DNA from: an uncultured Bacteroidales bacterium | GTDB taxonomy: Bacteria > Bacteroidota > Bacteroidia > Bacteroidales > F082 | DNA: 35,801 bases | NCBI GenBank assembly: GCA_947164955.1 | Contig: CAMUYT010000009.1 | Span: 1-35,801 of the forward strand | Direction of reading: 5' to 3' | Shown here: in pieces, positions 1,400-29,128 of the stretch | Numbering within the stretch: position 1 is the stretch's first letter | Layout: each line of letters starts with the position of its first letter | Notes under the pieces: generated by a model | What the model was told of the DNA's origin: nothing | What the model saw: only the letters and a program-made list of their open reading frames with translations | Databases searched by the model: none | Position numbers and translations under genes: made by a program

Positions 1400-1404
1400 G
1401 TGTT

Positions 1405-2585: not shown

Positions 2586-2588
2586 GCC

Positions 2589-12183: not shown

Positions 12184-12191
12184 TACATTTG
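12184..12191 (+). promoter_or_regulatory. -7 promoter element upstream of the five-gene array
   Basis: TACATTTG is a perfect TAnnTTTG match 40 bases before the start codon at 12232. I see no convincing TTTG at the -33 position. With a terminator just upstream, this is the likely start of the array transcript. Confidence 0.5.
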
Positions 12192-12231
12192 TCGGTTGAA
12201 TTAGAAAACAATCGATAAACAATATCACCTT

Positions 12232-13335
12232 ATGAACAAGATTACGAGAATCCTTTGTGTGGCCATGATGCTCCTGGTCATGCCGTTGAAACAGTTTGGG
12301 CAAAGATTCAATGAGAACATTATTGAAATTGAATTGTCTACTTTCAGTAACCCCGACTTTCGGTATTGTCTACTTTCAGCAATCGCCAGTGATAACAACA
12401 TCTCATATTTAATAGATGAAGAATCCAGCAGTGTTCTGTTATCTTGTGCAAATGATTCATGGGACGATCAGCAATTTCATTTTTACTATAATGATATAAT
12501 GAATCGTGCCACCAATGAATTCAATTTTTATACACAAGCGAACAAAGAAGCCCAAGGAATCACCTTCTCCTCTTGGAAAGAAGCCCTGCCTCAAGATCTT
12601 TTCGTTTTGTTATTTAGACAACTACTTATCGAGAATCCGAGCTTTAGAGATGGAAATCAAACATGTGCCAACTCCGATCCTTTCTGCACCACTGATGTTG
12701 TTACATTCCATGTAGACGCTAGTGCAAGTGGAGTTTGTGAAAATGGACCAGATTACGGATGCATGAGCAGTTACACCCAGAGACCTCCATTTTGGTTTCA
12801 TATGAAAATCGGTGTAGCTGGGACGTTTACCATCCAAATAACCAATAGTAATGGGCTTGATTTGGATTTCTGCGCTTGGGGTCCTTTCAGCGACCCTGTA
12901 GCTCCTTGTCCGAATCAACTTACTGCCGATAAAATCATCGACTGCGATTCCCCATGGAACACAGTACAAGAATGCACTGTACCTGCGTCTGCTCAAGTTG
13001 GACAATACTATCTTTTGGTTATCACGAAATACTCTTCTGGTTCAACCGACATTACATTTCAAAAGGTACCAGGCAGTGGCCCCGGAGAAACTGACTGTGG
13101 CATTTTACCAGGTATCGCTACCAATAATGGGCCTTATTGCGTAGGCGAAACAATACAATTAAATGTAAATGCTCAAGATGGAGCCTCTTACAATTGGACT
13201 GGGCCTGGAGGATTCACCTCTACCCAACAAAACCCTACCCGTCCAAACTGTACTATGGCTATGGCAGGTATTTACACCTGCGTTACTAGTGTTGGAACCC
13301 AATCTACCACTGCTACCACAGAGGTAACTATCTAT
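12232..13335 (+). other. AT-rich 5' segment within array gene 1
   Basis: Sampled 60-base lines here are roughly 28-48% GC, against about 60% just after position 13340. The change is abrupt, near the Ig-to-PKD boundary. Where the protein matches array gene 2 almost residue for residue (TDCGILPGIATN, then GPYCVGETI), the DNA differs at many third positions, with A/T in place of G/C. A foreign or anciently diverged allele joined to a local 3' half would explain this. Confidence 0.7.
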
Positions 13336-15666
13336 CCCCAGCCTACGGCCAACTTCAACTTCACCTCGGTATGCCGTGGCACGCCGACGCAGTTCACCAG
13401 CACCTCCACCACCAATCCCAGCGGCCAACAGATCCAAAGCTACCAGTGGAACTTCGGCGATGGCCAGACTGGGACGGGGCAAAACGTCACGCACACCTAT
13501 GCCAACGCTGGCAACTACACCGTGACGCTCACCACCTCGTGTGGCAACGGGCTGTGCACCAGCACCAAGACCCAAAGCGTGCCCGTGTATGCCGCCCCTG
13601 TAGCCTCGGCCACGGCCCAACCCAACACCGTCATCTATGGCGGCGTGTCGACCCTCACCGCCAATGCCGGTGCCACCGGCTCGTTCAACTTCCATTGGGA
13701 GCCCGCCAACATGGTCGTCAACGCCAATGCGCAGACCACACAGACCGTTCCTTTGACCGCTTCGCAGACCTACACCGTGACTGTCACCAACCCACAGGGC
13801 GGCTGTAACAGCACGGCCCAAGTCACCGTCAGCATGGAAGGCTCCAACATGACCGCCATGGCCTCTGCCGATGCCTATGAGCTCTGCGAAGGCGAGTCGA
13901 CCACACTCCATGCCCAAGCCTCAGGCGGCACTGGCAACTACACCTATACCTGGAGCCCAGCCAACACGCTTAACAACGCTAGCATTGCCAACCCCGTGGC
14001 CACTCCCCCCGTTGGCGTCACCACCTATACCTGCAACGTGAGCGATGGCATCACCGGACAAAACGTCAGCGTCACAGTAATGGTCCACCCCAACACCGAA
14101 GCCGACATCTACCAAACCATCTGCGAAGACGACACCTACAACTTCTTCGGCCAAGACCTGAACACACCCGGCGTGTATGACCACACCATCGAGACCCAAT
14201 ATGGCTGCGACAGCACCATCCATCTCCATCTCGACAACTGGCAAGTGTATGAAACGCCCATCACGCGCCATTTCTGCCAAGGCGAAAGCTACCAGTTCTT
14301 CGACCAAAGCCTTTCGGCTAGCGGCATCTATTACCACACCCTCGAGTCGGTACACGGCTGCGACAGTGTCATCAAGCTCAACCTCATCCAAGACCCGAGC
14401 TACGAAGTGTTCCTCACCGAGTCGACCTGCGAAGGCGGCCCTGGCTATTACTTCTCCCCCTTGGACATCTTCCTCCAGCCTGGTGCATACTCGCTCGACT
14501 TCGAGACCACCGCTGGCTGCGACAGCATTGTGCTCCTCCTTGTCGAGGAATCGGAATACAACTCCAAGAACTACAATGTCTCCATCTGCGCTGAGCAATA
14601 CACTTGGCCTTCAAATGGTGAAACATATTATGAATCAGGAACTTACTACGACACCATATCCTATCCCAACTCCTGCGACAGCACCCTTGTGCTCAACCTT
14701 GAGCTGAGGCCCAGCTACAGCAACGATGTCGTCGTTACCAGTTGCGACAGCTACCGCTGGAAGAACGATGCCTACAACGTGGACATCACCTACACGGAGA
14801 GCGGTGTCTACCACCATTCCTACATCAACTCCTATGGCTGCAACAGTGAGGCGACGCTTTACCTTACCGTGAACGACCACGACGAGGAGGACTTCACCGT
14901 TGCCGAAGAGGAGAGCTGCGACAGCTATTTCTGGGATCCGCAAGGCCACGAGATCATTTACACCGACCACGACGACCTGGAATACACCATGTCGGGTACC
15001 TATCACCGCACCTACAAGAACATCTACGATTGCGACAGCTTGGTGACGATGAACGTTCAGTTTGAATACACGCCCCATCCCACCGACATCCAACCCATGG
15101 ACGCCACCAACGAGGCTCCCCACTGGGTAGTCACTGCCACCGAGTTCCAAATCAACTCCTACGACTTCAACTTCTGGGACACCAACCCCAACTGCCACTG
15201 GGACACCGTCACATGGACCTGTGACGAGGCGCCCAACTGGGTGCTTGAGCCCTTCGGTTCCATTGGCCAATGTTGTAAGGTATATGTGCTGAACTATGTA
15301 GAGGACACCCTTTGGCTGAGAGCACGCGCCTTTAACCGTTGCACCAACGAAGGCGTGGAGCAGCGCTACTGGCTCGTTTGCTCGTTCTATGGCGTGGAAG
15401 AGATGGAGAGCAGCCTCGCCAACTTCGACGTCATCCCCAACCCCAACAACGGACAGATGCGACTCGACTTCGAATACCTCACCGGCAACATCGACGTGAG
15501 GGTATACGACATGAAGGGTTGCCTCATCGACAAATTCCAGACCTTCAACGCCAACGGACCTTATTCATACACCTACAACATGAAGGCCAAGAACGACGGC
15601 ATCTACTTCTTTGTGGCCACCAGTAAGGAAGGCACCGTAGCGAAGAAAGTCGTAATACAACGCTAA
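12232..15666 (+). CDS. Large secreted mosaic protein, array gene 1 (PKD, six GCDS repeats, T9SS cargo)
   Basis: The 1144-residue product has a signal peptide ending QFGQ (about residue 24) and an uncharacterised N-terminal domain of about 120 residues. A Cys-rich beta domain follows (about 145-285), containing DPFCTTDV, GPDYGC and DLDFCAWGPF. An Ig-like unit (YCVGETI) and a PKD domain (about 372-452, with YQWNFGDG) come next, then two more Ig-like units. Six Cys-paired repeats of about 45-55 residues span about 627-943. The array-wide module runs from YTPHPTDIQPMD to VCSFYG (about 945-1056), and a T9SS sorting domain begins VIPNPNNG (about 1066). The overall look is that of a surface adhesin or matrix protein; no catalytic motif is visible. 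The first 1.1 kb differs sharply in base composition from the rest. Confidence 0.85.
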   Translation: MNKITRILCVAMMLLVMPLKQFGQRFNENIIEIELSTFSNPDFRYCLLSAIASDNNISYLIDEESSSVLLSCANDSWDDQQFHFYYNDIMNRATNEFNFYTQANKEAQGITFSSWKEALPQDLFVLLFRQLLIENPSFRDGNQTCANSDPFCTTDVVTFHVDASASGVCENGPDYGCMSSYTQRPPFWFHMKIGVAGTFTIQITNSNGLDLDFCAWGPFSDPVAPCPNQLTADKIIDCDSPWNTVQECTVPASAQVGQYYLLVITKYSSGSTDITFQKVPGSGPGETDCGILPGIATNNGPYCVGETIQLNVNAQDGASYNWTGPGGFTSTQQNPTRPNCTMAMAGIYTCVTSVGTQSTTATTEVTIYPQPTANFNFTSVCRGTPTQFTSTSTTNPSGQQIQSYQWNFGDGQTGTGQNVTHTYANAGNYTVTLTTSCGNGLCTSTKTQSVPVYAAPVASATAQPNTVIYGGVSTLTANAGATGSFNFHWEPANMVVNANAQTTQTVPLTASQTYTVTVTNPQGGCNSTAQVTVSMEGSNMTAMASADAYELCEGESTTLHAQASGGTGNYTYTWSPANTLNNASIANPVATPPVGVTTYTCNVSDGITGQNVSVTVMVHPNTEADIYQTICEDDTYNFFGQDLNTPGVYDHTIETQYGCDSTIHLHLDNWQVYETPITRHFCQGESYQFFDQSLSASGIYYHTLESVHGCDSVIKLNLIQDPSYEVFLTESTCEGGPGYYFSPLDIFLQPGAYSLDFETTAGCDSIVLLLVEESEYNSKNYNVSICAEQYTWPSNGETYYESGTYYDTISYPNSCDSTLVLNLELRPSYSNDVVVTSCDSYRWKNDAYNVDITYTESGVYHHSYINSYGCNSEATLYLTVNDHDEEDFTVAEEESCDSYFWDPQGHEIIYTDHDDLEYTMSGTYHRTYKNIYDCDSLVTMNVQFEYTPHPTDIQPMDATNEAPHWVVTATEFQINSYDFNFWDTNPNCHWDTVTWTCDEAPNWVLEPFGSIGQCCKVYVLNYVEDTLWLRARAFNRCTNEGVEQRYWLVCSFYGVEEMESSLANFDVIPNPNNGQMRLDFEYLTGNIDVRVYDMKGCLIDKFQTFNANGPYSYTYNMKAKNDGIYFFVATSKEGTVAKKVVIQR

Positions 15667-15713
15667 CTTATTTTCAACTACACAAATACACCTATTTTAA
15701 TTTCTAACCTAAG

Positions 15714-18413
15714 ATGAACAATTTTTGCAGAATCGCTGTTGTGGCACTTTTGCTGCTTTGCGCACCCTTGAGACAATGGGCGCAAACACCCTATAGGCAA
15801 TATGCCGATGAAGGCGTTTTGTTGAACTTCCATGAAATCGAGAATATCGACTTCAGGCTTTACCTACTGTATAACATGGGTATGGACGAGAGGTTCTCGC
15901 TTCTCGCCGAGGAAGAAAACGGCCACTTCGTGGTAACCCCTGGCAGCACGCGTTCCAACAGCAGTTTTTTTGAGGCCTTCGAGTCGTTCTACAACGACAC
16001 GTACGCCGATTTCGTCCTTCTCTCGAAGAACGACATTCTCGACCGCTTCCCCGTATGGAAGGAAAGCGTCTCACCGTTCCACTTCACGTCAATCATGATG
16101 GACCTCTTCGCCGACCGCGTGCCCACCATCAACAACCACTGCATCGATTCCGACCCCTTCTGCACCTCTGATGTCATCACCTTCGATGCCGCCATGACGA
16201 GCCAAACCGCCGACGAGCTTGAAGGAACCCCAATTGAAGACGGCTGCATTGGTTCGTCTTACAATCCTTCATGGTATCACATGAGAATCAACACTTCGGG
16301 CCAATTTGTCATCCACGTGGAAGGCCACGATCCCACCACGAATGTTGAAAGAGACGTGGACTTCTGCATGTGGGGGCCTTATGAAGACCCCACCTCACCT
16401 TGCGTGGCTCAACTCACCATAGACAAAATCATCGACTGCAACTTCTCAGCATCGTATTCGGAAGACATTTATTTGGGCTATGACGGCGATAGTCATGTAC
16501 ACCAAACCAGCCATGGCACGATCAACTACCACATGCCTGAGACAGGTGAGTACTACATCCTGATGATCACCAACTATTCGCGCCAACCTTGTACGATCTC
16601 GTTCACCAAGACCGAGAACTCTGGTCCTGGCACCACCGACTGCGGCATCTTGCCTGGCATCGCCACCAACGATGGTCCCTACTGCGTGGGCGAGACCATC
16701 AACCTGACAGTCACCACACAAGCCGGAGCCACCTATGCATGGTCTGGTCCCAACGGCTACACTTCGACTTTGCAAAACCCGGTCTTGCCCAACTGCACCT
16801 ATGAGATGGGCGGCATCTACAGCTGTGTGACCACCGTTGACGGACAAACCACCAGCGGCGAAACGGAGGTAGTCGTCTTCCCCGAACCCGTGGCCAGCTT
16901 CAATGCACCTGCCGTTTGCGAAGGCGAGACCACACAGTTTACGAGCACGGCTTCGACCTCCCCCGCAGGGCACGAAATCGACGGTTTCCATTGGGACTTC
17001 GGCGACGGCAGCACCTCTGAAGAGGAAAATCCCAGCCACACCTACGCTTCGGCTGGTACCTATACCGTGACGTATACGGTGCACACCGGCAACGGCAGAT
17101 GTGAAGATGCCATCACTCAAGAAGTCACCGTCAACACCATGCCGGTGCCCACGGCCAGTGTCAATCCCACTTCGGTCATGTTTGGCGGCGTGGCGACACT
17201 CAGCGCCACGGCAGGCGTCGAAGGCTCGTTCAACTACCATTGGGAACCAGCCAACATGGTGACCAACCCCAACTCGGCAACGACACAGACCGTGCCGCTC
17301 GAAGAGACACAGGTCTACACCGTGACCGTCACCAACAACGAAGGCGGTTGCACAAGCACGGCACAAGTCACCGCAGTGATGGCAGGCTCTAACATGAGTG
17401 CCACCGCCACGGCCGACGATTACTCGCTCTGCAACGGCGAATCGACCACCATACACGCCCTCCCCATTGCGGGCACCGGTAATTACACCTACAGTTGGAC
17501 CCCTGCTAGCTCGCTCAGCAACCCCAACACGGCCAATCCCACTGCCACCCCACCGCTGGGGAGCACCACCTATAGTTGCCACATCAGCGACGGCATCACC
17601 ACCGTGGATGTCAGCGTGACTATCGTCGTCCATCCCCTGCAGGTGAGTGACTTCACTGTGGAAGAAAGCGAGAGTTGCGACAGTTACTATTGGGATCCTA
17701 TGGGACACACCATCGTTTCTACCGACCACGAAAATCCCACCTTTGACCGTTCGGGGACCTACCACAGGACCTATCTCGACCAAATGGGCTGCGACAGCGT
17801 GGTGACCATGACCGTTGATTTCGAATACACGCCCCAACCCACAGACATCCAACCGATGGATCCCTCCAACACCACTCCCCATTGGGTGATTACCGCTACG
17901 GAGTTCCAAATCAACTCCTACGACTTCAACCTATGGGACACCAATCCCAACTGCTATTGGGACAGCGTCAGTTGGAGTTTCGACCAACCCGTCGACTGGG
18001 TGCTTGAGCCTTTTGGCGACCGTAACACCTGCTGCAAAGTACACGTCCTTGAACAAGTGGACGACACTGTGTGGCTCGAAGCCCATGCCTACAACCGCTG
18101 CGCGCCACAAGGTATCACACAGCGTTATTGGCTTGTCTGCTCGTTCTACGGCATCGACGACAACGACCTTCCCGTGTCATTTGACGTGACGCCCAACCCC
18201 AACAACGGACTGATGCAGCTCCATTTCGACCCGATGGAAGGGAACGTCGAAGTGCGCGTCTACGACATGAGAGGCACGCTCATCGACCAATTCCAAACCC
18301 AAAACGAAAGTTACTACGACTATGACATGAGTGCCACGGCTGACGGCATCTACTTCTTTGTTGCCACCTGCAAGAGGGGCACTATGACCAAGAAAGTCAT
18401 TATCCAGCAATAA
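15714..18413 (+). CDS. Secreted mosaic protein, array gene 2 (PKD, one GCDS repeat, T9SS cargo)
   Basis: This is an 899-residue paralogue of array gene 1 with the same order of parts. A signal peptide ends QWAQ (about residue 24). An N-terminal domain is followed by the Cys-rich domain with DPFCTSDV and DVDFCMWGPY, then the Ig-like unit YCVGETI. A PKD domain has FHWDFGDGS, and Ig-like units follow. A single Cys-paired repeat (SCDSYYW ... GCDSVVT) comes before the shared module YTPQPTDIQPMD ... VCSFYGIDD and the sorting domain with VTPNPNNG. It lacks five of the six repeats in gene 1, which accounts for most of the length difference. It starts 47 bases after gene 1 with no terminator between, so the two are probably cotranscribed. 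It is GC-rich throughout, unlike the 5' part of gene 1. Confidence 0.85.
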   Translation: MNNFCRIAVVALLLLCAPLRQWAQTPYRQYADEGVLLNFHEIENIDFRLYLLYNMGMDERFSLLAEEENGHFVVTPGSTRSNSSFFEAFESFYNDTYADFVLLSKNDILDRFPVWKESVSPFHFTSIMMDLFADRVPTINNHCIDSDPFCTSDVITFDAAMTSQTADELEGTPIEDGCIGSSYNPSWYHMRINTSGQFVIHVEGHDPTTNVERDVDFCMWGPYEDPTSPCVAQLTIDKIIDCNFSASYSEDIYLGYDGDSHVHQTSHGTINYHMPETGEYYILMITNYSRQPCTISFTKTENSGPGTTDCGILPGIATNDGPYCVGETINLTVTTQAGATYAWSGPNGYTSTLQNPVLPNCTYEMGGIYSCVTTVDGQTTSGETEVVVFPEPVASFNAPAVCEGETTQFTSTASTSPAGHEIDGFHWDFGDGSTSEEENPSHTYASAGTYTVTYTVHTGNGRCEDAITQEVTVNTMPVPTASVNPTSVMFGGVATLSATAGVEGSFNYHWEPANMVTNPNSATTQTVPLEETQVYTVTVTNNEGGCTSTAQVTAVMAGSNMSATATADDYSLCNGESTTIHALPIAGTGNYTYSWTPASSLSNPNTANPTATPPLGSTTYSCHISDGITTVDVSVTIVVHPLQVSDFTVEESESCDSYYWDPMGHTIVSTDHENPTFDRSGTYHRTYLDQMGCDSVVTMTVDFEYTPQPTDIQPMDPSNTTPHWVITATEFQINSYDFNLWDTNPNCYWDSVSWSFDQPVDWVLEPFGDRNTCCKVHVLEQVDDTVWLEAHAYNRCAPQGITQRYWLVCSFYGIDDNDLPVSFDVTPNPNNGLMQLHFDPMEGNVEVRVYDMRGTLIDQFQTQNESYYDYDMSATADGIYFFVATCKRGTMTKKVIIQQ

Positions 18414-18419
18414 GAATTT

Positions 18420-18447
18420 GTTGAGACGCGCCAAGGCGCGTCTCAAC
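18420..18447. repeat. Perfect 13-bp hairpin of the GAGACGC family between array genes 2 and 3
   Basis: GTTGAGACGCGCC (18420-18432) pairs perfectly with GGCGCGTCTCAAC (18435-18447) around a two-base loop. No T-run follows, so it is not a standard terminator. It lies 17 bases before the next start codon, where it could affect translation or mRNA end formation. Confidence 0.8.
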
Positions 18448-18464
18448 CCCATTTATAAACCATT

Positions 18465-21400
18465 ATGAAACGCCTTTACTATATTATCGGATTTGTTCTT
18501 GTCTTCGGCTGCTTCCTCTCTCCCGCAGCCGCACAAAACACCTCTACCCAAGGCAAGGAGTTTTGGCTCACCTTCATGCACAACGGGTTCAGGGACCACA
18601 CCAGTGGCGGTGGTTGGATTACCACGCAGGTGCTCATCAGCGCCAAGCGCGACTGCACAGGCACAGTAGCCAATCCACTCACAGGATGGCAGCAGGAGTT
18701 CTCGGTCAGGGCCAACAGCATCACCACGGTGGAAATTCCTGAGGCTCAAGGCTATCACGACCAAAACAATTACGAGACAATCAGCCAGAAAGGCATCAAG
18801 GTGGAGGCCAACGACACCATCTCGGTGTATTGCACCAACATCGCCTACGTTTCCTTCGACGCTTCCTTCGTGTTGCCCACCGAAAGCCTGGGCGATGAAT
18901 ACATCATCCAGAGTTTCGACCAATCGACCGATGGAGGCAATGCCGGCAACGGTTATGTCATCTATAACGAGACCAGTGCTTTCGCTATCGTGGCCACCGA
19001 AGACAACACCGTCATCGACATCACACCGAAATGCAACACCTTAGGCGGAAGGCAGGCGGGCGAGACCTTCAGCATCACCATGAATGCCGGCGAGACCTAC
19101 CATGTGCGCTCGACGAGGTCGGGAGTCAACCGCGACCTCAGCGGCACCAAGATTTTGGCCGCCGACTGCAAGAAAATCGCCGTCTTCAACGGCAACACCC
19201 TCACCTGCGTACCCACCAACACCGGCAACGGCTTCGACCACATCTTCGAGCAAGCCATGCCCTTGCGCTCATGGGGCAAGCAGTTTGTGGTGACCTCATC
19301 GCTGCACCGCACCCGCGACTTCATCAAGATCACCTCGAGCGCCAACGACAACATCGTCACCAAGAACGGTGAGGAACTGACCACCCTGAGGGAAGGTCAG
19401 TCCTACACTTTCTATATGCCCGTAGCCGAACAGTCGTGCTACCTCGAAACCACGCAACCCAGCGCGGTCTACCTCACCCACAACTCGAGTCACGACTTCT
19501 ACTACAACCCCCGCGAGCTTGGCGACCCCTCGATGGTTTGGATCGCCCCCGTCGAGCAACGCATCAGTGACGTCACCTTCTCCACCTTCGACCATGCGGG
19601 CATCAACATCACCAACCATTGCGTCAACATCATCGTGGAAACCGCCGACACCGCCAACGTCTACCTCGACGACGCGCAAATCCAACCTCGTTCGTTTAGT
19701 CGCGTAAACGGAAACGACTCTTTGAGTTTCACAAGATTAGATATCGACCACGGCGTACACCGAATCGTTTGCCCCAACGGTTTCAACGCCCACGTGTACG
19801 GCTTCGGCGATGCCAAGGGCTATGCCTATCTCGTCGGCTCCAACGCCATCGACTTGAGCACCAACCTCACCATCAACGGTGAGGTGATACTGCCCAACGA
19901 AAGCTTCCAATATTGTGCCGACATGCCCATCACCTTCAGTGCAGAAGTCAACCAACCCGACTATGAAATCCTTTGGGACTTTGGCGATGGCACCACCAGC
20001 GACCAAAACCCCACCACACACACCTTCAGCGAAAGCAGGGTCTACGATGTTTCGGTAGCCATCACCACCAGCGAAGGCGGTTGTACCGGATCGGCGAGCA
20101 ACACGACCACATTTAGTATCGACGCCACACAACAATACATCGTCGAACATGACGAGGTTTGTTCGGGCGAGCTATACAGCGGCTTTGGGTTCAACAATGT
20201 GCACATCCTCAACGACACCCTACTGACGCGCCTGCAAGCCAATCCCATCCATGGCGAATGCCAAGATTCGGTGTTGGTTTACATCACCGCCAACGAACAG
20301 TACCACATCCCCATCGAAGACAGCCGTTGCTGGCAAGGCGAGCCTGGGCTCTACGACGACTATGGCTTCAGCTTCGTATATGACCAGCCCGGCACCTACG
20401 ACCGTCAGCTCAACCTGCTCACCGTGCAAGGCTGCGACAGCATACTCAACCTCCATCTTACTGTTGCCTCGCAAGTGACCCACGAATTCAGTCACCATGA
20501 ATGTGGCAGCAGTTACGTTTGGGATGGACAAACCTACACTGCCCCAGGCGATTACGAACGAGCCTACGTTGCCTTAGGCGGTTGCGACAGCATCGTCACC
20601 ATGCACCTCACCATGGGGATGCCCCAACACACCACATTCGACACCATCACATGCAGCACCTTCCACTGGAACGGGCAAGCCTACAGCCAAAGCGGCACCT
20701 ACCAGCAGACGTTCACCACCATCGATGGCTGCGACAGCATCGTGGACTGCCACCTCACCCTCTCGGGCAACGTTGAAGGCGCCACGGCCAACATATCCGA
20801 ATGCGACTCCTATTTCTGGATCGACTCCACCTATACCCAATCCGGCCTCTATGAGAAGACACTCTCGACCGCCTTGGGATGCGACAGCCTCGTGAGGCTC
20901 AACCTCGATTTGGAATACACCCCCAACCCCACCGACATCTATCCCGCCGACCCCGAAAACACAGCCCCCCATTGGGTCGTCACGGCCACCGAATTCCAAA
21001 TCAACGATTATGAGTTCACGTTGTGGGACAACAACCCATCATGTCATTGGGACTCCGTCGCTTGGGCCTTCGAAGACCCCAGTGTTCAGTGGGTGCTCGA
21101 ACCTGACACGAGCGGTAATCTCCCAGGACGAACCTGCAAGATTTATGTCTTGAACCACATCGACGACACCGTGTGGCTCAACGCAAAGGTCTATAACCAG
21201 TGCCATCCCCAAGGCGTTGAACGACGCTATTGGTTTGTGTGCTCGTTCTATGGCCTCGACGACATCGACCCTGCCGCCCATCCTGCAACCTTCACCGTGA
21301 TCCCCAACCCCAACAACGGTGAGATGAGCCTCAACTTCGAGCATCTGACAGGCAAGATCGACATCAAGGTGTACGACATGAGCGGCAGCCTCATCGACCA

Positions 21401-21530
21401 CTTGCAGACTTACAGTGCGACCGACCGCCACACCCTGCCCTACCAATGCACTTCGCGTGCAAAAGGCATCTACTGCTTCGTCGTCACTGGCAAAGAAGGA
21501 ACCGTGACAAGAAAAATCATTGTCCAATAA
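18465..21530 (+). CDS. Secreted IgGFc-binding-like mosaic protein, array gene 3 (PKD, GCDS repeats, T9SS cargo)
   Basis: The 1021-residue product has a signal peptide ending AAAQ (residue 24). A long N-terminal region (about 25-470) matches the IgGFc-binding-protein-like family of Bacteroidota. Its marks are STQGKEFWLTFM near the start, then FVLPTESLGDEYIIQSF, IVATEDNTVIDITP and FEQAMPLRSWGKQFVVTS. A PKD domain (about 482-552, ILWDFGDGTT) follows. Then come five Cys-paired repeats, several ending GCDSI, the shared module YTPNPTDIYPAD ... VCSFYGLDD, and a T9SS sorting domain starting VIPNPNNG (about 944). The family name comes from a mammalian mucus protein; binding to IgG or mucus is not shown by the sequence. 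The gap from gene 2 is 51 bases and holds only the hairpin. Confidence 0.85.
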   Translation: MKRLYYIIGFVLVFGCFLSPAAAQNTSTQGKEFWLTFMHNGFRDHTSGGGWITTQVLISAKRDCTGTVANPLTGWQQEFSVRANSITTVEIPEAQGYHDQNNYETISQKGIKVEANDTISVYCTNIAYVSFDASFVLPTESLGDEYIIQSFDQSTDGGNAGNGYVIYNETSAFAIVATEDNTVIDITPKCNTLGGRQAGETFSITMNAGETYHVRSTRSGVNRDLSGTKILAADCKKIAVFNGNTLTCVPTNTGNGFDHIFEQAMPLRSWGKQFVVTSSLHRTRDFIKITSSANDNIVTKNGEELTTLREGQSYTFYMPVAEQSCYLETTQPSAVYLTHNSSHDFYYNPRELGDPSMVWIAPVEQRISDVTFSTFDHAGINITNHCVNIIVETADTANVYLDDAQIQPRSFSRVNGNDSLSFTRLDIDHGVHRIVCPNGFNAHVYGFGDAKGYAYLVGSNAIDLSTNLTINGEVILPNESFQYCADMPITFSAEVNQPDYEILWDFGDGTTSDQNPTTHTFSESRVYDVSVAITTSEGGCTGSASNTTTFSIDATQQYIVEHDEVCSGELYSGFGFNNVHILNDTLLTRLQANPIHGECQDSVLVYITANEQYHIPIEDSRCWQGEPGLYDDYGFSFVYDQPGTYDRQLNLLTVQGCDSILNLHLTVASQVTHEFSHHECGSSYVWDGQTYTAPGDYERAYVALGGCDSIVTMHLTMGMPQHTTFDTITCSTFHWNGQAYSQSGTYQQTFTTIDGCDSIVDCHLTLSGNVEGATANISECDSYFWIDSTYTQSGLYEKTLSTALGCDSLVRLNLDLEYTPNPTDIYPADPENTAPHWVVTATEFQINDYEFTLWDNNPSCHWDSVAWAFEDPSVQWVLEPDTSGNLPGRTCKIYVLNHIDDTVWLNAKVYNQCHPQGVERRYWFVCSFYGLDDIDPAAHPATFTVIPNPNNGEMSLNFEHLTGKIDIKVYDMSGSLIDHLQTYSATDRHTLPYQCTSRAKGIYCFVVTGKEGTVTRKIIVQ

Positions 21531-21547
21531 TTCCACTGCGTTATTAT

Positions 21548-21582
21548 TTTGTCATGAGGTGCACCTAATTAATATATATTTG
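21548..21582 (+). promoter_or_regulatory. Promoter with internal palindrome before array gene 4
   Basis: TATATTTG at 21575-21582 is a perfect -7 match. TTTG at 21548-21551 is a possible -33, though the 23-base spacing is long. Between them lies the perfect 10-bp palindrome AGGTGCACCT (21557-21566), a possible operator. The promoter position favours the ATG at 21601 over an in-frame ATG at 21520, which would overlap array gene 3. Confidence 0.5.
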
Positions 21583-21600
21583 CGCACTAAAACTGACAAA

Positions 21601-24201
21601 ATGAGAGGCTTATACGACAAACTATTGATATTCATAGCCCTTGTATTATCCATACAAGGACTGAAAGCACAAGACGTCACGACCGAAGGCACCGATTTCT
21701 GGGTGTCGTTTATGGGCAATGGATTTGAAAACAACAGCACCAACGGTAGTCCCTACCTTATCAACCAGTTGTTGATCAGTTCAAAACAAGACTGCACAGG
21801 CACCGTCACCAATCCCAACAACCCCAATTGGTCCATCGACTTCACCGTGGCCGCCAACAACATCGAGTTTATCGACATTCCCAAGGAGCAAGCCTACGCT
21901 GAGCTCACGGAGTACAGCAGTCCTGTCAACAAAGGCATCTTTGTACATACCACGGCCCCCGTCTCGGTCTACTGCGTCAACGCGGCCCGCTATTCCTTCG
22001 ATGCCTCCAACGTATTGCCCGTGGAAGCTTTGGGCGACGACTACATCATCCAGACCTACGACCAATCGGAATCCGACTTTGGTGAACACTCCAGTGCATT
22101 CCTCGTCATCGCCACAGAAGACGGTGAGACCACTGTCGACATCACGCCCAGCGTGAAAACCCTCGACGGCAAGGCCGCTGGCGAAGAGTTTTCGGTCACA
22201 CTCCAAAAAGGCCAGGCCTATCAAGTGCGTTCACACAAGGACTTTTCATATTGGGGCAGTAACGAAAGTCGCGATTTGAGCGGGTCGAGAGTGACAGCGC
22301 GCGACTGCAAGAAACTCGCGGTCTTCAACGGCAACACGCTGACCACCGTGCCGCAGACAGGCAACGACTCCGACTGCATCTTTGAGCAGGCCATGCCTAT
22401 CCAGGTATGGGGCAGGAAGTTTGTGGCTACCGCCTCGCTGGGACGTCAGGCGCAAGAAAACGACTACATCAAAATCACTTCGGCGCACGACGACAACGTC
22501 ATCTATAGGAACGGGACTGTGTTTGCCACCCTCAACGCCAACGAATCGCAAACCTTCAGCCTGTCGCAAACCGATGCCTCGTGCTACATCGAGGCCACTT
22601 ATAGCTGTGCCGTCTACCTATATAACCATTCCAACTCGGGCAGTGCCACTTCAAAAGGTGCGCCCAGCATGGTGTGGATCGCCCCCATCGAGCAGCGCAT
22701 CGAGGAACTTACGTTTTCCACCTTCACCGACCCCAGCCCTGGCCATGTCACTGTCGACAAGCACTACGTGAACATCATCGTCGACAGCGAAGACGTGAAC
22801 GACGTCACCCTCGACGACAATGTCATCGACGCATCGCAATTCCGCCCAGTGAATGGTTCGAGCGACTACATGTTCTACAGGACCGAAATCGACCATGCTG
22901 CACATCATCTGTCGTGTCCCAACGGTTTCAACGCCCATGTGTACGGCTTCGGCAACGCCACGGGTTATGCCTATATGGTGGGCTCGAAAGCCGCCGACCT
23001 CTCCACCACCATCAGCGTCAACGATGAGATCACTGTGCCCAACGACACCATTATCAACTGCTCCTTGGTCACCCTGACCTTCAACGCCGACGTCAACCTG
23101 AGCGGCTATTCCTTGGTTTGGGACTTTGGCGACGGCACCTCAAGTACTGAAAATCCGGTGCAACACACCTATGAGGAATACGCTTTCTACAAGGCTACGC
23201 TGCAAGTCAACACCCAAGCCGCCCCTTGTGGCGGTGGTTCCACCTCCAACACCTACGACCTCTTCATCGATGCCCGTCGCGAGCCCGACCTCAACTATAA
23301 CGACAGCATCTGCGCTGGCGAATTCTATACTGGATACGGCTTCACCGACGTCCTCATCACGAGCGACACCACGTTGACCCGCGAAGAGCCCAGCGCCATC
23401 AACCCCAGCTGCATGCGGCTCGTCAACGTCGCCATCACTTGTACCCCCATCCTCAACGGTGAGACCATCAGCGAAAGCGGACACTGCGACTTTTTTGAGT
23501 GGAACGGCAACACCTACACTGAGCCTGGGCTCTACACCGACACCATTTCCAACGGTGACGGCTGCCTCAGTGTCGTCCACCTCGACCTTGACCTTCAATA
23601 CTCCCCCAACCCCACCGACATCTACCCTGTCGACGCAGCCAACACGGCCCCGCACTGGGTTGTCACTTCCACCGAGTTCCAAATCAACGACTACGATTTC
23701 ACCTTGTGGGACAACAACCCTGCCTGCTATTGGGACACTGTAGTCTGGAGCCTTGAAGGCAACGTGCATTGGGTGCTGGAACCCCAAGGCGAGAAAGGAG
23801 AACGCTGCAAGATGTATGTGCTCGACAGGATTGAGGACACCATTTGGTTGACCGCCAAAGTATACAACGGTTGCGCGACAGCAGGTCCCATCGAGCGCCG
23901 CTATTGGTTCGTCAGCTCGTTCTATGGCATCGACGATCCTTCAGCCACTTCAGCTACCTTCGATGTGACCCCCAACCCCAGCAAGGGGCAGATGACCCTG
24001 CATTTCGACAACCTGACAGGCCCCATCGACGTCAAGGTGTTGGACATGAGCGGCGAAATCATCGATAACATACAGTTATTCAACGACATGGACAAAAACG
24101 TTTTTCCTTATCAACTCGGCCACCGCGCTGCTGGTGTCTACTTGTTTGTGGCCACAGGCCGCGAAGGTAGCCTGACGAAAAAAGTCATTATTTGCCCATA
24201 A
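21601..24201 (+). CDS. Secreted IgGFc-binding-like mosaic protein, array gene 4 (T9SS cargo)
   Basis: The 866-residue product is read from the ATG at 21601, which opens a proper signal peptide (ending LKAQ, residue 24). The longer in-frame start at 21520 would place 27 non-signal residues in front and overlap gene 3. The N-terminal IgGFc-binding-like region has TTEGTDFWVSFMGNG, NVLPVEALGDDYIIQTY and CKKLAVFNGNTLT. A PKD domain (about 485-560, LVWDFGDGTSS) is followed by two degenerate Cys repeats, the shared module YSPNPTDIYPVD ... VSSFYGIDD, and a sorting domain with VTPNPSKG. The usual Cys of VCSFYG is Ser here, and the last residues are VIICP, an unusual ending with a Cys near the terminus. 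It probably has its own promoter. Confidence 0.85.
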   Translation: MRGLYDKLLIFIALVLSIQGLKAQDVTTEGTDFWVSFMGNGFENNSTNGSPYLINQLLISSKQDCTGTVTNPNNPNWSIDFTVAANNIEFIDIPKEQAYAELTEYSSPVNKGIFVHTTAPVSVYCVNAARYSFDASNVLPVEALGDDYIIQTYDQSESDFGEHSSAFLVIATEDGETTVDITPSVKTLDGKAAGEEFSVTLQKGQAYQVRSHKDFSYWGSNESRDLSGSRVTARDCKKLAVFNGNTLTTVPQTGNDSDCIFEQAMPIQVWGRKFVATASLGRQAQENDYIKITSAHDDNVIYRNGTVFATLNANESQTFSLSQTDASCYIEATYSCAVYLYNHSNSGSATSKGAPSMVWIAPIEQRIEELTFSTFTDPSPGHVTVDKHYVNIIVDSEDVNDVTLDDNVIDASQFRPVNGSSDYMFYRTEIDHAAHHLSCPNGFNAHVYGFGNATGYAYMVGSKAADLSTTISVNDEITVPNDTIINCSLVTLTFNADVNLSGYSLVWDFGDGTSSTENPVQHTYEEYAFYKATLQVNTQAAPCGGGSTSNTYDLFIDARREPDLNYNDSICAGEFYTGYGFTDVLITSDTTLTREEPSAINPSCMRLVNVAITCTPILNGETISESGHCDFFEWNGNTYTEPGLYTDTISNGDGCLSVVHLDLDLQYSPNPTDIYPVDAANTAPHWVVTSTEFQINDYDFTLWDNNPACYWDTVVWSLEGNVHWVLEPQGEKGERCKMYVLDRIEDTIWLTAKVYNGCATAGPIERRYWFVSSFYGIDDPSATSATFDVTPNPSKGQMTLHFDNLTGPIDVKVLDMSGEIIDNIQLFNDMDKNVFPYQLGHRAAGVYLFVATGREGSLTKKVIICP

Positions 24202-24202
24202 A

Positions 24203-24235
24203 ATTGCCGCTTTTCAGAAAAAAGTTGTATTTTAG
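24203..24235 (+). promoter_or_regulatory. Weak candidate promoter before array gene 5
   Basis: ATTG (24203-24206) and TATTTTAG (24228-24235; one mismatch to TAnnTTTG) are 21 bases apart. GCCGCT and AGCGGC could pair across the same stretch. Transcription from upstream is an equally good alternative. Confidence 0.3.
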
Positions 24236-24262
24236 CGGCACAATTCATTAAAATTCAAAGTC

Positions 24263-27139
24263 ATGAAGTATCTGAGAACAATTTTTGTCACCATAGCCTT
24301 TTTCCTTGCCGTTCCCTTGGCCCTTGAAGCCCAAGACACCTCGACGCAAGGTACCGAGTTCTGGGTCTCGTTTATGAGCAACGGCCACAAATACCATCCC
24401 GACGCGCCCAATGACGGCAACTGGGTGCTCACCCAGCTCCTCATCAGCTCGCAACACAACTGCAACGGCACCATCAACAACCCGCAAACGGGATGGTCGA
24501 GGACATTCACGGTGCAGGCCAACAACATCACAACCGTTGAGATTCCCGAGAGTCAAGCCTATATCGACGACCAATCGGAGCAGGTGTTGAGCAAAGGGCT
24601 GCAAATCACCACCGACAGTGTCGTGTCGGTCTTCTGCACCAACATCGCCCACCTCTCCTTCGATGCCTCGTATGTGCTCCCCGTACAGAGCCTGGCAAGC
24701 GACTACATTGTTCAGACCTACAACCAGTCGCATTCTGCAGGCAGCTCCAACCCTTACCAACGCATCCACGAAACCAGCGCTTTCCTTATCGTGGCCACCG
24801 AAGACAACACCACCATCGACATCACGCCAACAGCGCTGACCTTGGGCAACCATGCCGCCAACCAGACCTTCAGCATCACGATGGACAAGGGGCAGGCCTA
24901 TCAAGTGCGTTCCAACAATAGCGTCAACGAGCGCGACCTCAGTGGTAGCACCATCACCGCCCACGATGGCAAGCCCATCGCCGTATTCAATGGCAACACC
25001 CTCACCGCCATCCCCACCAATGCCAGCAGCTACGACCACATCTTTGAGCAAGCCATGCCCATACAGTCGTGGGGCAAGAAATTCGTGGTGACCGGTTCGC
25101 TCGAACGCGAGAGAGACTGGGTGAAAGTGACCTCTGTGGAAAACGGCAACCAAGTGCTGAAAAACGGCGAGTTGATTGCCACGCTCAACCAGAATGAGTC
25201 CCACATCTTCGAACTGACCAGCAACGAAAAGTCATGTTTCATCGAGACCAGCGGTCCTGCCGCAGTCTACCTATACAACAACACCCGAGGTGGCAACAGC
25301 ATCGGCGACCCGTCGGTGGTGTGGATCGCCCCCATAGAGCAACGCATCGACGACATCACCTTCACCACCTTCAACAACGAACACATCAACATCGACACCC
25401 ACCACGTCAACATCATCGTCGACCGCAATGACATCGGCACGGTCAGTCTTGACGGCAACCTGCTGCCTGCCAGCGCATTCGAAAACGTGGCCGGCTCAAA
25501 CGAGTATTCCTTCACCCGCCAAGACATCCCCCATGGCGTGCACCATCTGGAGTGTCAGCACGGTTTCAATGCCCACGTCTACGGATTTGGCACCGCCAAA
25601 GGCTATGCCTATCTGGTGGGCTCGAAGACCATCGACCTCAGCACACAGGTCACCATCAACGAGACCACGGTGCCCAAACAAGGCACCTATGAATACTGCC
25701 CCAACGAAACCATCAACTTCGCGGCCGACGTCAACTACGAAAACTACGAGCTCACATGGGAATTTGGCGATGGCGCCACGAGCACGCAGAACCCTGCCAC
25801 CCACACCTATGCCGAGAAGCGCGTCTATGAAGTGACCCTCACGGTCACCGCCAGCGGCAGAGCCCAAGACATCTCACACTACTACGTCGACACGCGCACC
25901 CACACCATCACTGAAAACGCAGAGATTTGCAGCGGCAGCACCTACACCGGCCATGGCCTCAACGTGACCATCTATAACGACACCATTCTAGGCCTGGAAA
26001 TCGACAACGACCAACACCCTGTCTGCAAAGACAGCCTGCTGATCTACTTCACGGCCTTGCCTGCCATCTATGCCACATACAACGACACCCGTTGCTGGTT
26101 TGGCGAGCCGGAGACCTACAACGCGTACGGCTTCAACTTCGTTTATGACCATCCTGGCGAATACAACGAGCAAATCACCCATCCCAACCCCGAAGGCTGC
26201 GACAGCATCATCGACTTGCACCTCGTGGTAGCCGACCGCATCGTCAACCCCGACCCCATCGAATACATCGGCTGCGAGGCCTCGTTCACCTGGAACGACG
26301 TGACCTATACCGAGAGCGGCGACTACGAACAAGTGCTGGTTTCGGACATGGGCTGCGACAGCATCATCCAGCTCCATATCGTGCTGGACGAAGCCGTTGA
26401 AGGCGGCACCGACACCATCGCCGGGATGTGCACCGCCTACGAATGGCACGGTCACTTCTACGACCAGCCTGGCTTCTATACCGACACCATCCCCAACAGC
26501 ATCGGCTGCGACAGCATTGTGCACCTCCAACTCACCATGTCGCTCACTCCCGACCCCTCGGAGATCCAGCCTATGGACACGCTGACCGCCAACCCGCACA
26601 TGGTCATCTCGGCCACGGAGTTCGACATCCACTCTTACGACTTCACCCTCTACGACAGCAACCCAGGCATGGTTTGGGACTCGGTGGTTTGGAGCTTCGC
26701 CACCGACAACAACGAGTGGGAGTTGCGTCCCTTTGGCGAAGGCGACCGCTGCTGCAACGTCGTCGTCACCAACCGCGTGGAAGACACGGTTTGGCTGGTG
26801 GCCAAGGTGTATGACCCATGCCACCCTGGCGAAAGCATCGAGCGGCGCTATTGGCTGCTCTGCACCTTCTATGGCGTCGATGAAAACGACGTCGCCACTT
26901 TCGACATCATCCCCAACCCCAACCAAGGCGCGATGACCATCATCACCCAAGGCGAGAAAGGCGATGCCGAAGTCAAAGTCTACAACATGACCGGTGTTTT
27001 GGTCGACCAATTCGTGCTCAACACCGATTCGCAAGGCCGATATGCCTACAACCTAGGTGGCTATCCTAGTGGCATTTACCTCATGGTATTCCACCAACAG
27101 GGCAAAAACACTACAAAAAAGTTCGTCATAACAAAATAA
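24263..27139 (+). CDS. Secreted IgGFc-binding-like mosaic protein, array gene 5 (PKD, four GCDS repeats, T9SS cargo)
   Basis: The 958-residue product has a signal peptide ending LEAQ (residue 24). The IgGFc-binding-like region has DTSTQGTEFWVSFMSNG, YVLPVQSLASDYIVQTY, IVATEDNTTIDITP and FEQAMPIQSWGKKFVVTG. A PKD domain (about 475-545, LTWEFGDGATS) comes next. Four Cys-paired repeats follow, three ending GCDSI. The shared module is the most diverged of the five: it begins LTPDPSEIQPMD, lacks the Cys of the NPxCxWD motif (NPGMVWD), and ends LCTFYGVDE. The T9SS sorting domain starts IIPNPNQG (about 885). I see no terminator after it; an AT-rich gap with a new promoter leads to the next gene. Confidence 0.85.
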   Translation: MKYLRTIFVTIAFFLAVPLALEAQDTSTQGTEFWVSFMSNGHKYHPDAPNDGNWVLTQLLISSQHNCNGTINNPQTGWSRTFTVQANNITTVEIPESQAYIDDQSEQVLSKGLQITTDSVVSVFCTNIAHLSFDASYVLPVQSLASDYIVQTYNQSHSAGSSNPYQRIHETSAFLIVATEDNTTIDITPTALTLGNHAANQTFSITMDKGQAYQVRSNNSVNERDLSGSTITAHDGKPIAVFNGNTLTAIPTNASSYDHIFEQAMPIQSWGKKFVVTGSLERERDWVKVTSVENGNQVLKNGELIATLNQNESHIFELTSNEKSCFIETSGPAAVYLYNNTRGGNSIGDPSVVWIAPIEQRIDDITFTTFNNEHINIDTHHVNIIVDRNDIGTVSLDGNLLPASAFENVAGSNEYSFTRQDIPHGVHHLECQHGFNAHVYGFGTAKGYAYLVGSKTIDLSTQVTINETTVPKQGTYEYCPNETINFAADVNYENYELTWEFGDGATSTQNPATHTYAEKRVYEVTLTVTASGRAQDISHYYVDTRTHTITENAEICSGSTYTGHGLNVTIYNDTILGLEIDNDQHPVCKDSLLIYFTALPAIYATYNDTRCWFGEPETYNAYGFNFVYDHPGEYNEQITHPNPEGCDSIIDLHLVVADRIVNPDPIEYIGCEASFTWNDVTYTESGDYEQVLVSDMGCDSIIQLHIVLDEAVEGGTDTIAGMCTAYEWHGHFYDQPGFYTDTIPNSIGCDSIVHLQLTMSLTPDPSEIQPMDTLTANPHMVISATEFDIHSYDFTLYDSNPGMVWDSVVWSFATDNNEWELRPFGEGDRCCNVVVTNRVEDTVWLVAKVYDPCHPGESIERRYWLLCTFYGVDENDVATFDIIPNPNQGAMTIITQGEKGDAEVKVYNMTGVLVDQFVLNTDSQGRYAYNLGGYPSGIYLMVFHQQGKNTTKKFVITK

Positions 27140-27267: not shown

Positions 27268-28110
27268 ATGAAGAAGTACGTATTCAGAACCTTGGTTTTC
27301 ATTTGTGGGTTGACCCTGCTCAGCTCATGCATGAAAGACGATCCGGAACACAACTCGACCATTTATTACGGTTACCAACAGATTCCGAACATCAACGAGT
27401 TCATGCCGCAGTCGCTGTTGCAAGCTTTCAGCAATTACCTTTATTACGGCGACGAGCCGCCCAGAATTGAAGGATGCTATGTGGCCGACAACACCTTTAT
27501 CACTGATGTCATCCTGGCTCCTGGCAGTCCCTGGCTGAATGCCCCCACTCCCATCCCGACACCGCAGTACTTCGAATTCTTCGAGCAACACAAAGGCATT
27601 GCCAAGATGCGTTTCAAATACCCCAAAGGCAATCCTGGCGAATACACCTACTTCGTGGAGCGTTCCGACCCCGACACGACCTTCGCCATCGTCACGGCCA
27701 CGCCCGATTTCTTCATCAACGACACCATTGCCCCTTCCTATTTCCAGAACGGCAACTACCAAGAAGAGAACTTCAGCCATGTGTACATCATGGGTAACGA
27801 CCCCTACTTCACGGCCTATTACTACGAAATCCGCGACATCAAGTCGAAGGCGCAGCCGCTGAACGCCGTGATTTTCTCCGGCAAGATCGACAAGGAAATG
27901 GTGGTGCAGACCGACACCGTCAACAACACCAGCGACACCACCTACATGCGCGTCATCAGAGACCTGAGATGGGGCATTGAGACAATGAAATACTACCACG
28001 AAGGCACCAGCATCTCGCAAATCATCAGCTTAGGCTTCCTTCCCTCGAAAGGCGATGCGATGATCCTGAAGAACGAAGGCGTCGTGCACACCGGTGAATT
28101 TCCCGAATAA
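27268..28110 (+). CDS. Putative outer-membrane lipoprotein of unknown function
   Basis: The 280-residue product starts with a short basic end, a hydrophobic stretch and the lipobox LLSSC. Cys21 is the predicted lipid attachment site, followed by MKDDPE. The mature part is rich in aromatic residues and prolines, with no motif I recognise. I see no sorting domain, so it should reach the outer membrane by the lipoprotein (Lol-type) route rather than the T9SS. The next gene starts 24 bases later, so the two are probably an operon, and a joint role with the beta-barrel protein is likely. Confidence 0.75.
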   Translation: MKKYVFRTLVFICGLTLLSSCMKDDPEHNSTIYYGYQQIPNINEFMPQSLLQAFSNYLYYGDEPPRIEGCYVADNTFITDVILAPGSPWLNAPTPIPTPQYFEFFEQHKGIAKMRFKYPKGNPGEYTYFVERSDPDTTFAIVTATPDFFINDTIAPSYFQNGNYQEENFSHVYIMGNDPYFTAYYYEIRDIKSKAQPLNAVIFSGKIDKEMVVQTDTVNNTSDTTYMRVIRDLRWGIETMKYYHEGTSISQIISLGFLPSKGDAMILKNEGVVHTGEFPE

Positions 28111-28134: not shown

Positions 28135-29013
28135 ATGAAAAAGTCAACCATCATAATTCTCGTCACCCTTCTTTTCATTGGCGGCACTGCCAAAGCCCAG
28201 TTCAGGAAGCCCCTGCAATCGGCCAGCAACAGAGTGAATTCATCGGAGGCCAAGTACAACATCGGCCTTTCGGGCGGTCTCACCTCAACATATTGGGTCC
28301 ATTTCGGCGGGACCAAGACGCAATACAACGCCCCGTTCAACTTCGGCCTCATCGGTGGCCTCACCCTCGAACGCATGATCAACGGCAACACCTCCGTCAG
28401 CCTCGAAGGATACTATGCCATGCGCAAGACGCAACTCAACTACGAGGTACTCAACTTCCCCGTGGCCCTCAACGAGAACAAAGACTTTTACCGTCAGTTT
28501 GACGCCGAATACCAAGAGGTGGACGTGCAAGCCATCCTTACCTACTACCTCTCCAAGGGCAACCTCAGACCCTACGTATTTGTTGGACCGCGCGTCAGCG
28601 TGCCGCTCAACGGCACCTCCGTGTGGACGAAACAAGAGATCCTCAACTATGGCACGCCTGAGCAGCAGATCAGCGAAACAGGTGGCAGCATCGACACCGT
28701 TACCTTCAACGGCCAAAACGCCCGCCAATTCAACGTGGGTTTGGTGGCTGGCGTCGGTCTGCTCTACAAGCTCAACATCGGCAACTATTATTTCCTCATC
28801 AAGGCCGACGTTTCGGGCCATGCCGCGGTCATCAACTCGTTCACCAGCGAAGAAATCAACGGCGAGTCGCAAAACGTCATCGGTGCTTCCTACATCGACC
28901 CCTATCTGCTGGGCAAGCGCTTCAACACCGACGTCACCGCGAAGATCACCCTCATGTTCCCGCTAAAGAAGCAACTGCAAGGTGCTTGCATCAGATGGGG
29001 CGAGTATGACTAA
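28135..29013 (+). CDS. Outer-membrane beta-barrel protein (PorT-like family)
   Basis: The 292-residue product has a signal peptide ending AKAQ (residue 22). It then alternates short beta-strands in the style of small Bacteroidota barrels: YNIGLSGGLTSTYW, FGLIGGLTLERMI, VSLEGYYAM, PYVFVGPRVSVPL, FNVGLVAGVGLLYKL and a last strand VTAKITLMFPL. This fits the broad PorT-like/OMP_b-brl group. Membership is by general pattern, and I would not claim it is PorT itself. It is the second gene of a two-gene unit with the lipoprotein, closed by a terminator at 29031-29064. Confidence 0.75.
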   Translation: MKKSTIIILVTLLFIGGTAKAQFRKPLQSASNRVNSSEAKYNIGLSGGLTSTYWVHFGGTKTQYNAPFNFGLIGGLTLERMINGNTSVSLEGYYAMRKTQLNYEVLNFPVALNENKDFYRQFDAEYQEVDVQAILTYYLSKGNLRPYVFVGPRVSVPLNGTSVWTKQEILNYGTPEQQISETGGSIDTVTFNGQNARQFNVGLVAGVGLLYKLNIGNYYFLIKADVSGHAAVINSFTSEEINGESQNVIGASYIDPYLLGKRFNTDVTAKITLMFPLKKQLQGACIRWGEYD

Positions 29014-29030
29014 AAAATTGGAAAAAGAAC

Positions 29031-29064
29031 AAAAAAAAGAGACGCAAAATTGCGTCTCTTTTTT
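29031..29064 (+). terminator. Rho-independent terminator with GAGACGC-family hairpin
   Basis: GAGACGCAA (29039-29047) pairs with TTGCGTCTC (29050-29058) around AA, extended by an A-run on the left and TTTTTT at 29059-29064. The flanking A/T runs make it usable in both directions. It has the same core as the hairpin at 7201-7222. Confidence 0.85.
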
Positions 29065-29081
29065 GTTTTATGCTAACTTTG
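29049..29081 (+). promoter_or_regulatory. Bacteroidota-type promoter for the third C25 protease
   Basis: TAACTTTG (29074-29081) is a perfect -7 match. ATTG at 29049-29052, inside the preceding terminator hairpin, is 21 bases upstream and may act as -33. This supports the start at 29129 rather than an in-frame ATG at 28982, inside the previous gene. Confidence 0.55.
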
Positions 29082-29128
29082 CACCTCGTAAACATGACAA
29101 ACAAGTAACATCAATAAATTCAACAAAC

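What the first reader, a model, noticed from the sequence alone, without database searches (positions are those of the whole stretch)
12232..27139. Tandem array of five T9SS-secreted mosaic proteins with a shared C-terminal end and swapped N-terminal heads
Five consecutive same-strand genes encode proteins of 866-1144 residues. All end in Cys-paired repeats, then the same module, then a T9SS sorting domain. Genes 1-2 carry one head (GPDYGC-type domain, Ig, PKD) and genes 3-5 another (IgGFc-binding-like, PKD). A family that keeps its C-terminal end while exchanging heads looks like a diversifying surface system. That is inference; the architectures are read directly from the translations.
Basis: partly seen in the sequence, partly recalled or inferred. 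Interest (0 to 1): 0.75.

Follow-up and report, generated by a model that had tools for sequence, protein, structure and literature searches.

The report
Surface protein genes swapping head domains
Five neighbouring genes of an uncultured gut bacterium make secreted surface proteins with a common C-terminal end, and in one of the two gene families the N-terminal head is replaced as a cassette between relatives while the rest of the gene stays put, which points to a surface recognition system kept diverse by recombination.

Summary
Confirmed: five same-strand genes (12232-27139) share a ~108-aa module and a T9SS sorting domain; genes 1-2 carry one head (family A), genes 3-5 an IgGFc-binding-like head (family B). 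The array is a conserved locus of one genus, with 3-6 module genes in 23 arrays read.

'Swapped heads' is right but misplaced. A and B coexist as stable families. What is exchanged is the head within family A. Arrays G071 and G110 are 95% identical over ~34.7 kb except two stretches: one A head, and a segment of the neighbouring C25 protease. Of 17 close A pairs, 6 (at least 4 events) have heads under 60% nt identity; of 17 close B pairs, none. Across 48 A genes both halves of the head travel together (r 0.88), the Ig domain is intermediate, and module and sorting domain are uncorrelated with the head (0.08-0.13).

Heads form about five classes shared across genomes; gene 1 carries a class with strongly deviant GC3. 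The head is predicted as an alpha/beta domain plus a PPC/collagen-binding-like beta-sandwich. Best reading: surface-displayed adhesin or recognition proteins diversified by homologous recombination. Ligand and selecting agent are unknown. A variant of a known kind (P. gingivalis surface-domain exchange).

The parts
12232..15666 (+). gene 1, family A, 1144 aa
12304..13101 (+). head cassette of gene 1 (class 2), GC3 0.36 against 0.73 in the body
13144..13329 (+). Ig_2-like domain of gene 1 (below the Pfam cut-off); in the family this is the crossover zone
13339..13584 (+). PKD domain of gene 1
14137..15039 (+). six Cys-paired repeats of gene 1
15061..15384 (+). shared module, copy 1
15433..15657 (+). 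T9SS sorting domain of gene 1
15714..18413 (+). gene 2, family A, 899 aa
15786..16643 (+). head cassette of gene 2 (class 3)
17820..18143 (+). shared module, copy 2
18192..18404 (+). T9SS sorting domain of gene 2
18465..21530 (+). gene 3, family B, 1021 aa
18858..19802 (+). IgGFc_binding domain of gene 3
20910..21245 (+). shared module, copy 3
21300..21524 (+). T9SS sorting domain of gene 3
21601..24201 (+). gene 4, family B, 866 aa
22000..22947 (+). IgGFc_binding domain of gene 4
23593..23919 (+). shared module, copy 4
23971..24192 (+). T9SS sorting domain of gene 4
24263..27139 (+). gene 5, family B, 958 aa
24662..25585 (+). IgGFc_binding domain of gene 5
26537..26866 (+). shared module, copy 5
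26906..27130 (+). T9SS sorting domain of gene 5
27268..28110 (+). P6: predicted lipoprotein, no Pfam family; follows the array in relatives
28135..29013 (+). P7: outer-membrane beta-barrel (OMP_b-brl_2)
29006..33991 (+). C25 (gingipain-type) protease directly downstream of P7, with T9SS sorting domain
32891..33448 (+). counterpart, by alignment, of the C25 segment that is replaced between close relatives
3585..7073 (+). C25 protease upstream of the array
7457..12067 (+). C25 protease upstream of the array
404..3191 (+). Rnf/Nqr subunit genes (404-1399 NQR2_RnfD_RnfE, then FMN_bind, Rnf-Nqr, Rnf-Nqr), the left border of the locus

Best explanation
The genes encode large proteins exported by the type IX secretion system and, as type A sorting-domain proteins, most likely fixed to the cell surface. 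A stalk of Ig, PKD and Cys-repeat domains and a lineage-specific module stand between the anchor and a distal head. Family A (genes 1-2) works as a cassette system: a ~270-residue head (alpha/beta domain plus PPC-like beta-sandwich), with some or all of the following Ig domain, is replaced by homologous recombination between relatives. In the best-bounded case one crossover lies at the start of the gene and the other at the Ig/PKD border. About five head classes circulate through the genus. Family B (genes 3-5) showed no head replacement in close pairs. A segment of the C25 protease downstream is replaced in the same way. Shown by computation: architecture, locus conservation, head replacement, sharing of head classes. 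Inferred: surface anchoring, ligand binding by the head (adhesion or recognition), and selection for diversity by phage, toxins, hosts or competitors. Not known: the ligand, the route of DNA uptake, any role of P6 and P7.
Against: All sequences come from metagenome-assembled genomes. Only the G110 event is bounded by conserved sequence on both sides; in the other three the 200 nt upstream are only 21-37% identical, and two of them are paralogues within one array. Head classes are not random on the tail tree: 19 changes against a shuffled mean of 25.6, as low in 0 of 200. With best-match averaging, heads still correlate with P7 (r 0.36, 0 of 2000 permutations as high), and in the 18 arrays with every part r is 0.24-0.31. 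Rnf identity is 86-95% where heads are 80-87% identical, so long-lived shared alleles fit as well as recent transfer. No binding, export or anchoring was tested.
Confidence: 0.6

Rival explanations
1. Ordinary paralogue family: tandem duplication and vertical divergence, with heads simply evolving faster than tails.
For: Arrays grow and shrink (3-6 module genes), and single-gene forms exist in the genus. Head labels are partly clustered on the tail tree.
Against: Fast evolution does not give heads 80-90% identical above tails 31-45% identical, nor a sharp replaced block within 95% identical DNA. Clade tests reject it. Family B with the same tails behaves differently.
Confidence: 0.07
2. Assembly or binning artefact: strain mixtures in MAGs joined heads and bodies of different strains.
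For: All genomes are MAGs, some with 3-8% contamination.
Against: The G110 head gene lies inside a 151-kb contig and the G057 one inside a 133-kb contig. The G071 head recurs in G057, and the conflict runs through 48 and 97 genes from many assemblies. Family B on the same contigs shows no such pattern.
Confidence: 0.05
3. Self-recognition: heads bind heads of the same class on neighbouring cells, as in Myxococcus TraA, and exchange of the head changes the group.
For: A few deep classes; pairs of the same class within an array are rarer than in shuffles (6 of 43 against a mean of 12.5, fraction 0.0056).
Against: The rarity may reflect gene position and relatedness, which the shuffle ignores. 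One array usually shows two or more classes at once, which would blur identity. Nothing tests head-head binding.
Confidence: 0.12
4. Adhesins for different substrates (plant fibre, mucus or matrix proteins, protozoa): head classes differ in ligand, and exchange tracks niche rather than rarity.
Against: A shared fold shows no function. No link of class to host or niche was tested.
Confidence: 0.3

Closest known systems
Porphyromonas gingivalis surface-domain rearrangement and allelic exchange (PMC5266723; abstract, passages and section 19 seen)
   Same: T9SS surface proteins, C25 proteases among them, whose domain variants (Kgp catalytic domain, Kgp C-terminal adhesin domain, fimbriae, RagAB) form a mosaic unrelated to strain phylogeny; the authors propose negative frequency-dependent selection.
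   Different: There within one species. Here an unnamed head family on tandem non-protease genes, classes shared across a genus, and a sister family with the same tail that is not exchanged. The replaced segment of the neighbouring C25 gene is the closest parallel; homology of that segment to the Kgp adhesin domain was not tested.
Type IX secretion substrates with type A sorting domain
   Same: Sorting domain over the cut-off in 5 of 5 genes.
   Different: The ~108-aa module before the sorting domain was found only in one genus; the P6/P7 pair has no assigned role.
Type B substrates with cognate PorP/SprF shuttle proteins (PMC12618676, abstract seen)
   Same: A large secreted protein encoded beside an outer-membrane barrel gene.
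   Different: The sorting domain here is type A, and P7 hits OMP_b-brl_2, not a PorP/SprF family.
Myxococcus TraA kin-recognition receptor (PMC6626042, PMC5562445; abstract starts in a search listing only)
   Same: A polymorphic domain on a conserved surface receptor.
   Different: No evidence of homotypic binding here; no homology claimed.
PPC / clostridial collagen-binding domains
   Same: Predicted fold of the C-terminal half of the head.
   Different: 8-11% identity; no Pfam family above cut-off and no PDB sequence match.

Membership tests
T9SS type A substrates | C-terminal type A sorting domain | tested here: met
   5 of 5 genes over both curated cut-offs
T9SS type A substrates | N-terminal Sec signal peptide | tested here: inconclusive
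   Hydrophobic N-termini read by eye in 5 of 5; no signal-peptide program was run
T9SS type A substrates | Export and attachment to the surface | not testable with these tools
   needs an experiment
IgGFc_binding (PF17517) | Profile match over the curated cut-off | tested here: met
   Genes 3-5, 194-205 bits against a cut-off of 25.6; the name does not show that they bind antibody
PPC / collagen-binding domain | Beta-sandwich fold | tested here: met
PPC / collagen-binding domain | Sequence profile match | tested here: not met
   No PPC match among the Pfam families listed at E <= 1 for 7 heads; fold alone does not make it a member
Allelic domain exchange of surface proteins | Replacement of a bounded segment within otherwise near-identical DNA | tested here: met
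   One event bounded on both sides, three more with conserved bodies
Allelic domain exchange of surface proteins | Phylogenies of segment and rest conflict | tested here: met
Programmed antigenic variation (silent cassettes, shufflons) | Silent head copies, or a recombinase and repeats nearby | tested here: inconclusive
   The listed head matches in 173 family genomes lie in open frames of 433 aa or more, but the list was cut. One weak inverted repeat near the gene 1 head, not followed. The genome is 73% complete
PorP/SprF shuttle (for P7) | PorP/SprF profile match | tested here: not met
   The only Pfam match over its cut-off is OMP_b-brl_2

The most novel reading that the evidence does not exclude
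A genus-wide pool of about five head alleles, moved as N-terminal cassettes between species and displayed two or more at a time on a common T9SS scaffold, acts as a surface recognition code kept diverse by balancing selection. The IgGFc-type genes are its constant partner, and a coupled second variable segment sits in the neighbouring C25 protease.
Probability: 0.3. Interest if true: 0.78.

Novelty: new variant of a known kind. Interest (0 to 1): 0.6.

Why it matters
It is a natural experiment with a built-in control: one gene family whose head is exchanged, beside a sister family with the same tail whose head was not seen to be exchanged. It names a domain, its classes and its crossover zone, so the question of what drives surface diversity in uncultured gut Bacteroidales can be tested with purified heads and long-read metagenomes.

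Tried and rejected
Docking of the tail to P6/P7: a first analysis gave tail-P7 r 0.88 and partial r 0.91, but its control used whichever C25 paralogue scored best. With the C25 gene directly beside P7 as control the correlation is as high (0.80), so the coupling is the background of the whole locus and the claim was dropped.

Literature: nine searches of the held library. None of the listings showed this locus or head family in title or abstract start; this is no proof of absence. Seen: PMC5266723 (abstract, passages, section 19), PMC12618676 (abstract), PMC5080379 (passages); every other paper as a listing only.

Rows dropped or chosen: the 22 arrays of relatives were chosen because they held several module hits; most of the 38 relative loci because they held head or module hits. 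One more fetched piece (L153, 100 bases) was filler and not used. Genes without a sorting-domain match or with the head starting after residue 60 were left out of the 97 and 64. In 8 of the genomes (G044, G045, G062, G086, G094, G106, G122, G135) the A-type gene stood without the Rnf and C25 neighbours in the stretch read. Two A pairs at 79 and 84% carry mis-called starts. The number of head classes depends on the cut (8, 6 or 5). The clade tests used groups named after the trees were seen.

Full report
What is there. The window is contig C9 of a 2.39-Mb genome, 72.8% complete. Five same-strand genes encode proteins of 1144, 899, 1021, 866 and 958 aa. All five end in a T9SS type A sorting domain, preceded by a module of about 108 aa with 35 invariant columns among the five copies. 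Tails of the two head families match at 38-51% identity. Genes 1-2 have a head without a Pfam family above cut-off; genes 3-5 have IgGFc_binding, found nowhere else in the genome. Cys repeats number 6, 1, 4, 0 (one degenerate) and 3. Two more module genes lie elsewhere in the genome.

How widespread. The module was found in 56 of 173 genomes of the family, all in the window's genus (1 of 16 genera), and in the class sample only in the own genome (1 of 295). The head is wider: 114 of 173 family genomes and 11 of 16 genera, and 39 of 149 class genomes, own included, mostly its C-terminal half. Named records are Bacteroidales or Bacteroidia assemblies, many from rumen, deer, buffalo or horse samples.

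The locus. In 23 arrays, the window's included, 3-6 module genes stand together: 2-3 of family A and 1-4 of family B. In 22 of 23 they are followed by P6 and P7; the other ends at a contig edge. A C25 protease lies in 19 of 23 stretches read and an RnfD-like gene in 8 of 23 (Rnf identity). In two arrays A and B genes alternate. Simpler forms exist in the genus. Eight genomes have one A gene with an RnfD-like gene, P7 and C25 in the stretch read, and a P6 match in four of them. Ten have two A genes, P6, P7 and one B gene. So the window holds an expanded form of a conserved locus.

Head exchange, direct. Arrays G071 and G110 are about 95% identical from 49 to 34810 of the G071 stretch, apart from two gaps: 15816-16633 at the head of one A gene, and 33665-34241 in the C25 gene downstream of P7. 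At the head, identity is 95-100% up to the ATG, 33-65% to about +960, 62-83% to +1140, then 90-100%. G057 carries the G071 head; the G110 head is of the class of window gene 1. Over all close pairs (tail at 85% nt or more), 6 of 17 A pairs but 0 of 17 B pairs have replaced heads. The six reflect at least four events: one bounded on both sides, two between paralogues of one array, one (G095 against G118 and G127) with divergent upstream DNA.

Head exchange, genus-wide. For 48 A genes the head classes need 5 changes on the head tree and 19 on the tail tree (shuffled mean 25.6, so some clustering remains). Clade tests reject agreement both ways. By domain, the two halves of the head travel together (r 0.88), Ig is intermediate, and PKD, module and sorting domain form a second block (0.46-0.59); PKD, module and sorting-domain identity does not differ between same-class and different-class pairs. 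For 97 A genes the head-tail correlation is 0.09, for 64 B genes 0.42. P6, P7, the adjacent C25 gene and the tails correlate with P7 or with each other at 0.70-0.89, but A heads with P7, P6 or their own tails only at 0.10-0.15. Results that temper this: in the 18 arrays with every part, head-P7 r is 0.24-0.31, and best-match averaging gives 0.36, which no permutation reached.

A second hotspot. In the C25 protease downstream of P7, a segment of some 190 residues is 41% identical between G071 and G110 where the rest is 95%, and 23% identical between G109 and G132 where the rest is 87-94%. Over 15 full-length copies the identity of this segment correlates with the rest at 0.17-0.22, while the parts before and after it correlate at 0.83. 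The window's counterpart is 32891-33448.

Head classes. Average linkage at 45% identity gives classes of 39, 25, 13, 11 and 9 (6 or 8 classes at stricter cuts). Class 1 is the tightest (75% or more), across arrays whose tails and P7 are 30-41% identical in the pairs listed; Rnf identity between such genomes is 86-95% where measured, so long-lived shared alleles and transfer both fit. Head GC3 is below body GC3 in 22 of 22 genes of classes 1 and 2, and in 29 of 39, 21 of 25 and 6 of 11 of classes 3, 5 and 4. Window gene 1 is the most extreme of the 48 (0.36 against 0.73). Same-class pairs within an array are rarer than in shuffles (6 of 43 against 12.5), with the caveat of gene position and relatedness.

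Mechanism. Most likely the proteins reach the surface through the T9SS, and heads are replaced by ordinary homologous recombination of incoming DNA, with crossovers near the gene start and in the Ig/PKD stretch. P6 of the window has a lipoprotein cysteine followed by M-K-D-D-P, which fits the optimal surface export signal C-X-K-(D/E)2-X of Capnocytophaga (passages of PMC5080379); the strict pattern fits 19 of the 41 P6 starts printed, counted by eye. A docking role of P6/P7 is a guess.

Known or new. P. gingivalis mixes domain variants of its T9SS surface proteins independently of phylogeny, C25 proteases included, so the principle is known. New here, as far as nine library searches show, are the head family, its classes shared across a genus, the crossover zone, and the contrast between two families with one tail.

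Noticed in passing
G000:C48 (L166) 7934-13642: Another carrier of the family A head: an open frame of 1902 aa that runs off the contig, with the head at residues 1411-1659. Other genomes of the genus have the head in frames of 2000-3500 aa.
   Followed up: no
L073 (G000:C6) 5707-9690: A module gene without a family A head, followed by weak P6-like and P7-like genes (18 and 24 bits): the trio 'secreted protein, lipoprotein, barrel' may occur outside the array. Similar trios in G103:C7 and G138:C47.
   Followed up: partly
32891-33448: Counterpart of a segment of the downstream C25 protease that is replaced between close relatives; a second variable hotspot of the locus.
   Followed up: partly
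12190-12206 and 13035-13051: A 17-nt inverted repeat (88%) brackets most of the low-GC head of gene 1; may be chance.
   Followed up: no
L092 (G124:C2) 12151-17019: A family A gene of 1622 aa with extra tandem PKD domains (seven Ig/PKD stretches matched): stalk length varies too.
   Followed up: no
34304-35614: AAA_14 plus DUF4143 ATPase gene at the right border of the window; not linked to the array by any result here.
   Followed up: no
L072 (JAEEJK010000047.1): A record titled Prevotella sp. holds a family A gene with the module otherwise found in one genus of another label; perhaps mislabelled or mis-binned.
   Followed up: no
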